From the NCBI GenBank assembly GCA_028823175.1, contig JAPKBZ010000013.1:1-64000 (forward strand): DNA of 64,000 nt, in the 5' to 3' direction. This DNA is from Myxococcota bacterium. Lineage in GTDB: Bacteria; Myxococcota_A; UBA9160; UBA4427. Shown one piece after another: positions 38,139 to 41,515 of the stretch (positions are counted from its first letter, which is position 1; each line of letters starts with the position of its first letter). Under the pieces are notes generated by a model. That model saw only the letters and a list, made by a program, of their open reading frames with translations, had not been told where the DNA came from and made no database searches. A program made the translations under genes and the position numbers.

Positions 38139-39125
38139 TTAAGGCGTCCGGTTCGGCCTTGATCTTTGCCGGAAGCGAGAAGGTGAAGTTCCCATAATGC
38201 GCTTGAAAGCCGTCGAGAATGAGAAGGCGCTCGCGTATCCGACCTGATCGCTGATCACTGCGATAGAGTAGTCGCTCTCCGAAAGCAGTCGGCTGGCCTG
38301 ATCCATGCGAAGGCGCTCGACCATACGGGCGGGGGACGTCCCGTGCTGCCGCTTGACAATACGGTAGAGGCTGGTGCGCGAGACCCCGGCAGCAGAGGCG
38401 AGGGTTTCGGTGTCCCAGGGCCCCCGTGGGCGGTCCGTGACCCGGCTCCATAATCGGGTCAGGGTGATGAACTCGTTGCTCGGGCTCCGGTTTCCCTGGC
38501 GGAGGAGCATCGACTCGACTCGGTGGCGCAGAATCCCGGCGTAGAGTTCGAAAGCGTCGGCCTGGGCCGAGCTTGGCATCGGTACCGCCTCGGTCTCGAC
38601 GAGACGATTCGCGTAGCGGGAGAGGAGATAGCGAGCGGGGTCTTCTCCCTCGGGCTGGGATTTCAGCGTATGGCTCGGAAGGGCGCCACCCAAGGGATGC
38701 TCGGCCAGCATCCCCTGGACCGGGGGGAGCAGGCGAGCCAGCCAGTAGGCGGGCAGGCGCCGCGCTTGAAGGCTAACCAGGGAGCTCCAGCGGTCGCTCG
38801 CACCCAGCCGGATCGTCAGAAATTTCCAGGATGGGTCGCGCGTCCCGTAGCGTCGGGGCAAACCAGCAGGCGCCAGGGCGAGGTCGCCTTCCTCGATTGT
38901 GAGCCGTTCTTCGCCGACCTCGAGGAAACCACTGCCGCCCGCGCTACCCAGGAGGAGGTGATTTGCGCCGGGTCCCGACCAGTCGAAGCCCGCGAGGACC
39001 TCGCTGATCCCCACGACCCGGATGTCGACTTCGGTCAGCAGCCGGGCGCGGGGGTCGGCGAGGGATGCAAACCAATCCCGGCTGCCCGCCGGAACGCGAA
39101 CCTTGTGGGGGAAGGGTGTGATCAT
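38139..39125 (-). CDS. AraC-family transcriptional regulator
   Basis: A 328-aa protein with a cupin-like sensing half (FLEVGEERLTIEEGDLALAP) and a C-terminal double helix-turn-helix (LASAAGVSRTSLYRIVKRQ, and ISDQVGYASAFSFSTAFKRIMGTSPSRFR), the AraC/XylS hallmark. I took the ATG at 39125 as start. It is divergent from the selenoprotein operon, 102 bp away, and may control it; that is inferred from position. Confidence 0.9.
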   Translation of the reverse strand: MITPFPHKVRVPAGSRDWFASLADPRARLLTEVDIRVVGISEVLAGFDWSGPGANHLLLGSAGGSGFLEVGEERLTIEEGDLALAPAGLPRRYGTRDPSWKFLTIRLGASDRWSSLVSLQARRLPAYWLARLLPPVQGMLAEHPLGGALPSHTLKSQPEGEDPARYLLSRYANRLVETEAVPMPSSAQADAFELYAGILRHRVESMLLRQGNRSPSNEFITLTRLWSRVTDRPRGPWDTETLASAAGVSRTSLYRIVKRQHGTSPARMVERLRMDQASRLLSESDYSIAVISDQVGYASAFSFSTAFKRIMGTSPSRFRQRSRPNRTP

Positions 39126-39227
39126 TGATCTAGCATGGCACGAATTCGTATGCATTGGGAACCCCCGGGGATTGCCCCCGAAGCCGCCCGGCCCATATAA
39201 TCTGGACTCCTTACGACGAGGCTCGAC

Positions 39228-40481
39228 GTGGTCAGATTGGCGGACATTTCTGAGGTAGAGCGCGCGCATCTTCTGGCGAAGGAGTGCGCTCCCTTCCCCG
39301 GCCAGCCCTGGGTCGAGGGATTGCCCCTGAGCGATCGGCGGGTGGCCCTAGTGACCTCCGCCGGGCTGCACCGGGTGGGGGAGCAGGCCTTTTCCCTGGT
39401 AGACCTGAGCTACCGGGTGATCCCGAGTGATCTCGAGGCCAGCGACCTGACCATGACCCACTCCTCGGTGCATTTCGATCGCGTCGGATTTCGGGAGGAC
39501 GTCAACCTCGTCTTTCCCATCGATCGTTTGCGGGAGCTGGAGAACGAGGGGGTGATCGGCTCGGTGGCCGACCGTCACTATTCCTTGATGGGGGCCGGCT
39601 GGCTCCCCCAGCAGATCGAGCCGACGATGCGCGAACTCGCGCGATTGCTCAAGGAGGACGATGTGGATGCGGTCTGCCTCGTCCCCGTCTGACCCAACTG
39701 TACCCGCGCGGTCGGCGCGGCCAGTCACTACCTGGAATCCGAGGGGGTACCCACCACCGGGATCAGCCTTGTTCGTGAACATACCGAGCAGATGCGGCTT
39801 CCTCGTTTCCTGTGGGTTCCCTTCGAACTTGGCCGGCCTTTCGGAGCGCCAAACGAGCCGGATTTTCAACGCCGAGTGCTGCGGTCAGCCCTCGAGCTCT
39901 TTGAAGGGCACTCGGGCCCCGTGGTCCTGGCCGATTTTCCCGACGACGCGCCGCTGCGGACCGAAGATGAATCAGAGCAGGTGGGCTGGGCTTGTCCCGT
40001 TGTGTTTGATTCCGTTCCCGAGAGCCGATCAAAATTCGTCGACGAAACCTTGGCCGAGATGAGTCGCCTCGCCCCGTGGCACGAAGTGTACGTCGAAGCA
40101 AGAGGCGCGCCGGCGCCCGGGGCAAGCGGCCTGCTGTTCTCTCGAGTCGTGGAGCTGCTCGGAGAGTTCGCCGAGGGCGAATTGAATCCCGAGGTGGAGA
40201 GCGAGAAGGCGACCCAGGAGTGGCTACGCCTTGGCTGCGATGACCTGCGAACCTGGTACATGGAGGCCGCTCAAGGCCAGCCGGGAAGAGCGTCTTCGGG
40301 CGACTTGCGAGATTGGTTCTGGCGCAATACCGCGCTGGCCCGGCTGATTGGGGCCGCCGCCGAGACATTGCTCGATCACCCCGAGCCCATCCTGCGGATG
40401 CTGGCCGCGCGGGCCTTGGTCCCTCGGGAATATTTTTCCGTCCTGCTGGCGGGCAAGGGTTCGATGCCTTCGGAAAACTAA
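39228..40481 (+). CDS. GrdB-family selenoprotein (glycine/sarcosine/betaine reductase selenoprotein B-like), UGA read as Sec
   Basis: The frame from GTG 39228 (GAGG 6 nt upstream) runs to TAA 40481 with one in-frame TGA at 39690-39692, giving 417 aa with selenocysteine at residue 155. The sequence around it, CLVPV-U-PNCTRAVGAA, is the redox centre of this family. Both halves fit one protein: DLSYRVIP, HSSVHFDR and RLRELENEGVIG before it, and GVPTTGIS, PFELGRPFGAP and DFQRRVL after it. In glycine/betaine reductases this Sec attacks the substrate; the present subfamily is common in environmental bacteria with unknown substrate. A hairpin fitting a bacterial SECIS follows the UGA. It is 11 bp from the dioxygenase gene. 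Confidence 0.88.
39690..39720 (+). other. Sec codon and bacterial SECIS-like hairpin
   Basis: The UGA (39690-39692) is followed 11 nt later by a perfect 6-bp stem CCGCGC/GCGCGG (39704-39709 with 39715-39720). Its 5-nt apical loop is GGTCG, starting 17 nt after the UGA. Bacterial SECIS elements sit immediately 3' of the UGA and carry G residues, often GGU, at the start of the loop for SelB binding; the E. coli formate dehydrogenase element also has GGUC there. No selA, selB, selC or selD lies in this window. Confidence 0.75.
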
Positions 40482-40492
40482 GGAGTGCGTTG

Positions 40493-41515
40493 ATGGCCAA
40501 TATGACCGAGACAATTATCCGGGAGCCCATCGAGACGAGGGGGGCTTGGCTGGGATCTGAACTCGCGGGTAGTGATGCCTGGCTCATTCCACTGGAGAAC
40601 GAGCATCGGAGAGAGCTTAGAGAGGTCGTCGGCCAGGTGCGGAAGAGGGGGCTCCGCCTCGCCGATATTGGTCGGGATACGTTCGCCCTCGAAAGCCTTG
40701 CGCCGGTCCTAAGCAGCTTGGAGCTCGAGATCGAGGATGGGCTCGGTTTTAGCGTGGTCCGTGGGCTCGATCTTCAGGGGCTCTCTCCCGAGGAAGCCGG
40801 CGCAGCGTATTTCGCGGTTGGCGCCGCGCTCGGTCGGCCGATCAGCCAGAATGCCCAGGGGCACTTGGTCGGCGACATTCAGGACACCGGCCGGGATATC
40901 ATGAAAGATCCCGGAGTGCGCGGCTATCAGACCCGTATCTCGCTCCCCTTTCACACCGACACATCGACCGATTTGCTCTGCCTGCTCTGCTATCGCCAGG
41001 CGAGAAAAGGCGGGATGAGTTCGCTGGTGTCGCTTCAAACGATCTACAATCGTTTGCTCGCCGAGGCGCCTGGATTGGTCGATGTCCTCTATGAGCGTTT
41101 CCACTATGACTGCCGCGAAGAGAAGCACCCGGATGGAATGCCTTTTTATAGTCGATCCGCGGCGAGCGTCTGTGAGGGAAAACTCTCTCTGCGGCATAAC
41201 TCGGGATACGCTAAGAGCGCAGAGCGGCATGAGTCCTGCCCTCGATTGACCGAGGCCCAGTCTGAGGTGATGGATTTGATCGACAGGTTCTCATTGGACG
41301 AGGAGATTCGATTCGATTTGCGACTCGAGGAGGGAGACATGCTCTTCGTGAATAATTATCAGATCGCGCACGCGCGCACGGAATTCGAAGACTTCGCTGA
41401 GCCCGAAAGGAAGAGGCATCTGCTGCGCTTGTGGCTTCACCTGCACCGGGGGCGTCCCCTCGCCGCGGATTTCGACAATCGCGGAGGAATCGTTCAAACT
41501 GTCGATCGACGCTGA
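40493..41515 (+). CDS. TauD/TfdA-like Fe(II)/2-oxoglutarate dioxygenase
   Basis: A 340-aa protein with the iron-binding facial triad in FHTDTSTD (H154, D156) and the distal His293 in QIAHARTEFED, plus a downstream Arg in RKRHLLRLW that would hold 2-oxoglutarate. The ATG at 40493 has AGGAG 7 nt upstream. The family hydroxylates small substrates such as taurine, betaines and lipids. It is almost certainly co-transcribed with the selenoprotein, which suggests a linked catabolic step on a methylamine or similar compound. Confidence 0.88.
   Translation: MANMTETIIREPIETRGAWLGSELAGSDAWLIPLENEHRRELREVVGQVRKRGLRLADIGRDTFALESLAPVLSSLELEIEDGLGFSVVRGLDLQGLSPEEAGAAYFAVGAALGRPISQNAQGHLVGDIQDTGRDIMKDPGVRGYQTRISLPFHTDTSTDLLCLLCYRQARKGGMSSLVSLQTIYNRLLAEAPGLVDVLYERFHYDCREEKHPDGMPFYSRSAASVCEGKLSLRHNSGYAKSAERHESCPRLTEAQSEVMDLIDRFSLDEEIRFDLRLEEGDMLFVNNYQIAHARTEFEDFAEPERKRHLLRLWLHLHRGRPLAADFDNRGGIVQTVDRR

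What the first reader, a model, noticed from the sequence alone, without database searches (positions are those of the whole stretch)
39228..40481. Selenoprotein hidden by an in-frame UGA
Two open frames in the same phase are separated only by TGA at 39690-39692, and both halves match one GrdB-family protein. The UGA falls at the family's redox-active site (VPV-U-PNCTR). Automated calling would split it into two genes or call it a pseudogene.
Basis: partly seen in the sequence, partly recalled or inferred. Interest (0 to 1): 0.78.

Follow-up and report, generated by a model that had tools for sequence, protein, structure and literature searches.

The report
Selenocysteine-containing PrdB-like redox enzyme
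This gene from an uncultured Myxococcota bacterium reads one UGA "stop" codon as selenocysteine, giving a two-domain redox enzyme related to D-proline reductase; the reading is correct, but selenoproteins of this kind have been known for about twenty years.

Summary
Reading TGA 39690-39692 as selenocysteine gives one 417-residue protein, 39228-40481. Four independent lines support decoding. (1) The genome carries selA, selB, selD and a tRNA-Sec with anticodon UCA. (2) Every homologue that spans the site, over 130 matches in 98 related genomes, has an in-frame TGA; in 35 inspected residue by residue the motif is always U-P-x-C. Clostridial PrdB also has U there; alphaproteobacterial homologues have Cys. 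(3) A hairpin 17 nt after the UGA meets the published bacterial SECIS constraints and covaries strongly: 96.7% of pairs kept, 38 compensatory cells, 0 of 500 shuffles as good. (4) Both sides of the UGA are under purifying selection (dN/dS 0.14 and 0.18). Corrections: the relative is PrdB rather than GrdB proper, and it is unlikely to be a D-proline or glycine reductase: 118 bits against PrdB's cut-off of 300, and no pyruvoyl-subunit partner (PF09338) found in the genome. It has an extra C-terminal helical domain with no curated family, and in 8 of 12 readable loci a TauD-family dioxygenase follows it. PrdB-type selenoproteins were counted in marine metagenomes in 2005 and 2008, so the kind is known; the substrate is not.

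The parts
39228..40481 (+). Complete selenoprotein gene, GTG start to TAA stop, 417 aa with Sec155
   Evidence: Translation with TGA=U; homologues align from residue 1 to 400-417; purifying selection on both sides
39690..39692 (+). UGA codon for selenocysteine 155 in the U-P-N-C redox motif
   Evidence: TGA in all 35 homologues inspected at this column; U in Peptoclostridium PrdB and Cys in Haematobacter and Roseomonas homologues
39699..39701 (+). TGT codon for Cys158, invariant partner of Sec155 (UxxC)
   Evidence: Invariant column C158 in alignments A1 and A3
39704..39720 (+). SECIS hairpin: 6-bp stem 39704-39709 / 39715-39720 and apical loop GGUCG 39710-39714; the loop lies 17 nt after the UGA
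   Evidence: Fold -15.9 kcal/mol; covariation over 25 distinct sequences; meets the bSECIS constraints given in PMC13188914
39327..39947 (+). PrdB/GrdB-like alpha/beta domain, about residues 34-240
   Evidence: TIGR04483 and PF07355 matches; AlphaFold model
40023..40478 (+). C-terminal all-helical domain, residues 266-417, no curated family
   Evidence: Predicted alone at mean pLDDT 91.5; invariant Glu, Asp and Thr; no Pfam or NCBIfam match above chance
40493..41515 (+). TauD/TfdA-family Fe(II)/2-oxoglutarate dioxygenase, 11 bases after the selenoprotein stop, probably co-transcribed
   Evidence: PF02668 E 8.8e-29; a TauD gene lies directly downstream in 8 of 12 readable loci
38139..39128 (-). 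Divergent AraC-family regulator; its true start is probably near 39128, the listed ORF runs to 39269
   Evidence: PF12833 E 2.7e-23; an AraC-cluster ORF is also divergent in about six related loci

Best explanation
The gene encodes a selenoprotein. SelB and Sec-tRNA(UCA) read the UGA at codon 155 as selenocysteine, directed by the hairpin just downstream (shown by comparative evidence, not by experiment). The product is a two-domain oxidoreductase of the PrdB-like branch of PF07355. Sec155 and Cys158 form a UxxC redox pair in the alpha/beta domain (position shown by alignment and model; redox role inferred from PrdB and GrdB). The most likely chemistry is reductive cleavage or reduction of a small substrate by nucleophilic attack of the selenolate, with Cys158 resolving the intermediate and a thioredoxin-type donor restoring it (inferred). 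The helical C-terminal domain may take over a role that a partner subunit plays in D-proline reductase, such as substrate pocket or oligomer contact (inferred, weak). The divergent AraC regulator and downstream TauD dioxygenase suggest an inducible module for one small organic compound (inferred). The confidence given is for Sec decoding and family placement; for the stated chemistry it is about 0.4.
For: Machinery: SelB 269 bits over cut-off 242, SelA 476 over 268, SelD 277 over 125, tRNA-Sec 67 bits over 47 with anticodon tca. Conservation: every match in 98 genomes that spans residue 155 carries a TGA; the three matches without a stop end before it; 35 of 35 inspected sites read U-P-x-C. 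Two homologous loci are from other classes, a Rhodospirillaceae and a Gammaproteobacteria MAG. Cys stands at the site in Haematobacter and Roseomonas, U in Peptoclostridium PrdB. SECIS covariation 0.678 against 0.215 shuffled, 0 of 500 as high, slid controls at most 0.12. dN/dS 0.143 before and 0.175 after the UGA against the closest relative.
Against: No experiment. Hairpin energy alone is unremarkable (z about -1.2), so the SECIS case rests on covariation. The covariation shuffles ignore relatedness of the sequences, although the slid-partner control keeps it. The neighbourhood is conserved only in part: no TauD in four of 12 loci.
Confidence: 0.95

Rival explanations
1. Pseudogene or sequencing error: the TGA is a nonsense mutation and only the first 154 residues are made, or nothing.
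For: An ordinary stop codon splits the frame; the assembly is a draft MAG of 235 contigs.
Against: The same TGA is kept in independent genomes down to about 33% protein identity, and the downstream half is about as constrained as the upstream half.
Confidence: 0.01
2. Two separate proteins, with translation restarting at an ATG after the stop (39792).
For: An ORF of 229 aa starts at 39792.
Against: Conservation runs straight through the site, including residues between the TGA and that ATG such as Cys158, Arg160, Glu170, Gly173 and Thr176. A fixed TGA with a SECIS would be unexplained.
Confidence: 0.01
3. UGA is read as another residue such as Trp, by a changed genetic code or plain read-through.
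For: None found beyond the open frame.
Against: Homologues without UGA have Cys at the site, not Trp; a tRNA-Sec with UCA anticodon and SelA/B/D are present; many homologues end in TGA as a real stop.
Confidence: 0.01
4. It is a true D-proline or glycine-type reductase working in amino-acid fermentation.
For: Best profile is PrdB (118 bits), with the Sec at the homologous position.
Against: Score far under the equivalog cut-off of 300. No PF09338 pyruvoyl-subunit family in the genome, although the same search finds three in Peptoclostridium. Different neighbours.
Confidence: 0.05
5. It is a selenoprotein, but a thiol/disulfide or peroxide-detoxifying protein rather than a substrate-cleaving catabolic enzyme.
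For: A UxxC motif is common in redox-defence selenoproteins (PMC1088965; PMC2398784).
Against: No thioredoxin-type family matches, and the AraC and TauD neighbours point to a specific compound.
Confidence: 0.3

Closest known systems
PrdB, Sec-containing subunit of D-proline reductase (TIGR04483)
   Same: Homologous alpha/beta domain over residues 32-226; Sec at the aligned position; UxxC motif
   Different: 417 against 238 positions; extra helical C-terminal domain; no PrdA/PF09338 partner found; other neighbours, with TauD
GrdB, GrdF and GrdH selenoprotein B of glycine, sarcosine and betaine reductases (PF07355)
   Same: Shared PF07355 domain and Sec site
   Different: Aligns only to the C-terminal part of GrdB (PF07355 profile 223-345) and lies far under the GrdB/F/H cut-offs
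Marine 'proline reductase PrdB' selenoproteins of the Sargasso Sea and GOS data sets (PMC1088965, PMC2398784)
   Same: Same UxxC motif and Pfam family, abundant with Sec in marine DNA: 42 and 235 sequences
   Different: Sequences were not compared here, so whether the two-domain form is among them is not known
Alphaproteobacterial 'glycine/sarcosine/betaine reductase selenoprotein B family protein' (WP_035710215.1, WP_207415257.1)
   Same: Homologous over roughly residues 33-239
   Different: Cys in place of Sec (VPNCPxC); about 300 aa

Membership tests
Bacterial selenoprotein (UGA-Sec) | SelA, SelB, SelD and tRNA-Sec in the genome | tested here: met
   All over their cut-offs; anticodon UCA
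Bacterial selenoprotein (UGA-Sec) | Bacterial SECIS hairpin just after the UGA: 3-9 nt loop with G in its first two positions, stem of 4 bp or more, 16-37 nt spacing, energy -7.5 kcal/mol or lower | tested here: met
   Loop GGUCG, 6-bp stem, 17 nt, -15.9 kcal/mol; covariation
Bacterial selenoprotein (UGA-Sec) | Sec/Cys pair among homologues | tested here: met
   Cys in Haematobacter and Roseomonas, U elsewhere
Bacterial selenoprotein (UGA-Sec) | Selenium in the purified protein | not testable with these tools
   Needs 75Se labelling or mass spectrometry
PF07355 GRDB | Score over Pfam gathering cut-off | tested here: met
   46.5 over 22 bits, and all 19 members of the alignment match
D-proline reductase PrdB (TIGR04483) | Score over equivalog cut-off of 300 bits | tested here: not met
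   118.4 bits
D-proline reductase PrdB (TIGR04483) | Pyruvoyl proprotein partner PrdA (PF09338 family) | tested here: not met
   No match in own genome, 91% complete; positive control rings in Peptoclostridium
Glycine reductase GrdB (TIGR01917) | Score over equivalog cut-off of 602 bits | tested here: not met
   48.8 bits

The most novel reading that the evidence does not exclude
The two-domain protein and its TauD partner form an undescribed selenium-dependent catabolic or detoxification module of uncultured Myxococcota, with relatives in some Proteobacteria, in which a PrdB-type selenolate acts without a pyruvoyl subunit, the helical domain supplying the missing function.
Probability: 0.25. 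Interest if true: 0.55.

Novelty: new member of a known kind. Interest (0 to 1): 0.3.

Why it matters
It confirms one more gene that ordinary gene calling would cut in two, and shows that PrdB-like selenoproteins are widespread in an uncultured myxococcotal group (68 of 98 relatives, often several per genome), without a D-proline reductase context in the genome examined. Their substrate is unknown, so a common use of selenium in these bacteria is unexplained.

Tried and rejected
PDB search by sequence found nothing with the single protein, with the family profile, or above chance with the C-terminal profile. Foldseek and VIA-align gave no match that stands out for the whole model (best Z 7.3; best E 0.02) or for the C-terminal domain (best Z 4.0), and the viral library gave none; a missing match does not show a new fold. 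Hairpin energy against shuffles was not significant and is not used as evidence. A scan of the window for further in-frame TGA with open frames on both sides gave ten other places, none with a U-x-x-C or C-x-x-U motif judged by eye. Literature searches for PrdB-like selenoproteins and for selenoproteins in Myxococcota gave no paper. The chance estimate for TauD downstream assumes independent loci and is only an order of magnitude; its gene total of 4300 was my own assumption.

Full report
What is in the sequence. The frame 39228-40481 opens with GTG and ends with TAA; its only internal stop is TGA at 39690-39692, codon 155, in the motif VPV-U-PNCTR. An ordinary ORF list breaks it into 39228-39692 and 39792-40481. 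Reading TGA as a residue gives 417 aa. The PrdB profile TIGR04483 matches residues 32-226, straight across the TGA, and PF07355 matches residues 34-152.

Machinery. The window belongs to a draft genome of 4.64 Mb in 235 contigs, 91% complete. A genome of the same genus is labelled a Myxococcota MAG. The window's genome has SelB, SelA, SelD and a tRNA-Sec that scores 67.1 bits against a cut-off of 47 and that ARAGORN also reads as tRNA-SeC with anticodon tca.

Homologues. In 98 genomes of the same genus, family, order, class and phylum, 68 have a match, many of them several. Every match that spans residue 155 contains an in-frame TGA; the only three matches without a stop end at residues 122, 131 and 141. 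In the 35 cases read residue by residue the TGA sits at exactly this column and is followed by P-x-C. Two loci come from other classes, a Rhodospirillaceae MAG with two tandem copies and a Gammaproteobacteria MAG. In Peptoclostridium PrdB the aligned codon is also TGA; in Haematobacter and Roseomonas plasmid homologues it is a Cys codon. The second refutation test fails too.

SECIS. The window's RNA folds into a six-pair stem with loop GGUCG, the loop beginning 17 nt after the UGA, at -15.9 kcal/mol. This satisfies the bacterial SECIS constraints given in PMC13188914. Energy alone is not unusual. Covariation is: in 25 distinct sequences 96.7% of the pair cells are standard pairs, 38 cells differ on both sides from the commonest pair, and the covariation score is 0.678 against 0.215 in shuffles (0 of 500 reach it) and at most 0.119 when partners are slid. 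The loop keeps G then U at its second and third place in nearly all. The stem changes together with the encoded residues, for example R-A-V-G-A to Q-A-V-S-L.

Selection. Against the closest relative (89% identical) dN/dS is 0.143 before and 0.175 after the TGA; more distant relatives give 0.07-0.30 and 0.13-0.43, though with synonymous sites near saturation. Both halves are under purifying selection, which excludes a pseudogene.

What the protein is. It belongs to PF07355 but fails the PrdB, GrdB, GrdF and GrdH cut-offs by wide margins. PF09338, the family of the pyruvoyl-bearing partner subunits, has no match in the genome, while the same search finds three in the Peptoclostridium record, one of them just upstream of prdB. 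The genome is 91% complete, so a small chance of a missed gene remains. D-proline or glycine reductase activity is therefore unlikely. The AlphaFold model is confident (mean pLDDT 85.6, pTM 0.85): an alpha/beta domain with Sec155 between a strand (148-152) and a helix (158-171), and a separate helical domain, residues 266-417. The helical domain has invariant Glu, Asp and Thr but matched no curated family or solved structure in the searches made.

Surroundings. A divergent AraC-family regulator lies upstream and a TauD-family dioxygenase starts 11 bases after the stop. Of 12 loci of the roughly 400-residue form with readable downstream sequence, eight have a TauD gene directly downstream, six of one TauD type and two of another. 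The genome holds 11 TauD genes, so this is far above chance even allowing for relatedness. An AraC-cluster gene is divergent in the window and in about six relatives. I infer an inducible module for a small organic compound; the compound is unknown.

Comparison with what is known. PrdB-type selenoproteins were the third most abundant known family in the Sargasso Sea data (42 sequences, PMC1088965), and 235 Sec forms and 110 Cys forms were counted in the GOS data (PMC2398784). A Sec-containing PrdB-like protein in an uncultured bacterium is thus a new member of a known kind. What I did not find described is the two-domain form, its link with TauD, and its abundance in this myxococcotal group; absence from the library searched is weak evidence.

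Noticed in passing
L010 (G000:C57:12922-13836, minus): selD of this genome lies in a 781-residue open frame, behind what looks like a pyridine-nucleotide-disulfide oxidoreductase domain; the SelD N-terminal active site reads ECGGCAAK (Cys form).
   Followed up: partly
L022 (G000:C19:86910-87521, minus): A second PrdB-like selenoprotein gene in the same genome, 35% identical, with TGA at the same site (VPV-U-PVCHQ) and its own SECIS-like hairpin.
   Followed up: partly
L055:2774-5194: Two tandem copies of the selenoprotein gene in a Rhodospirillaceae MAG, both with the in-frame TGA, between murJ and a class I (W/Y) aminoacyl-tRNA synthetase gene.
   Followed up: no
L065:6142-7569 and L071:4776-6248: A selO gene (protein adenylyltransferase) lies next to a PrdB-like gene in two unrelated genomes, once with the Sec form and once with the Cys form.
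   Followed up: no
L077 (NZ_CP007453.1:258999-260039): A PF09338 (PrdA-type) open frame directly upstream of annotated prdB in Peptoclostridium acidaminophilum has no entry in the gene table at hand, which is known to be incomplete.
   Followed up: no
window:42281-43507 and L060:9311-10549: A beta-lactamase-fold (PF00144) gene lies two genes after TauD in the window and directly after TauD in L060 (the same cluster also in L058 and L059).
   Followed up: no
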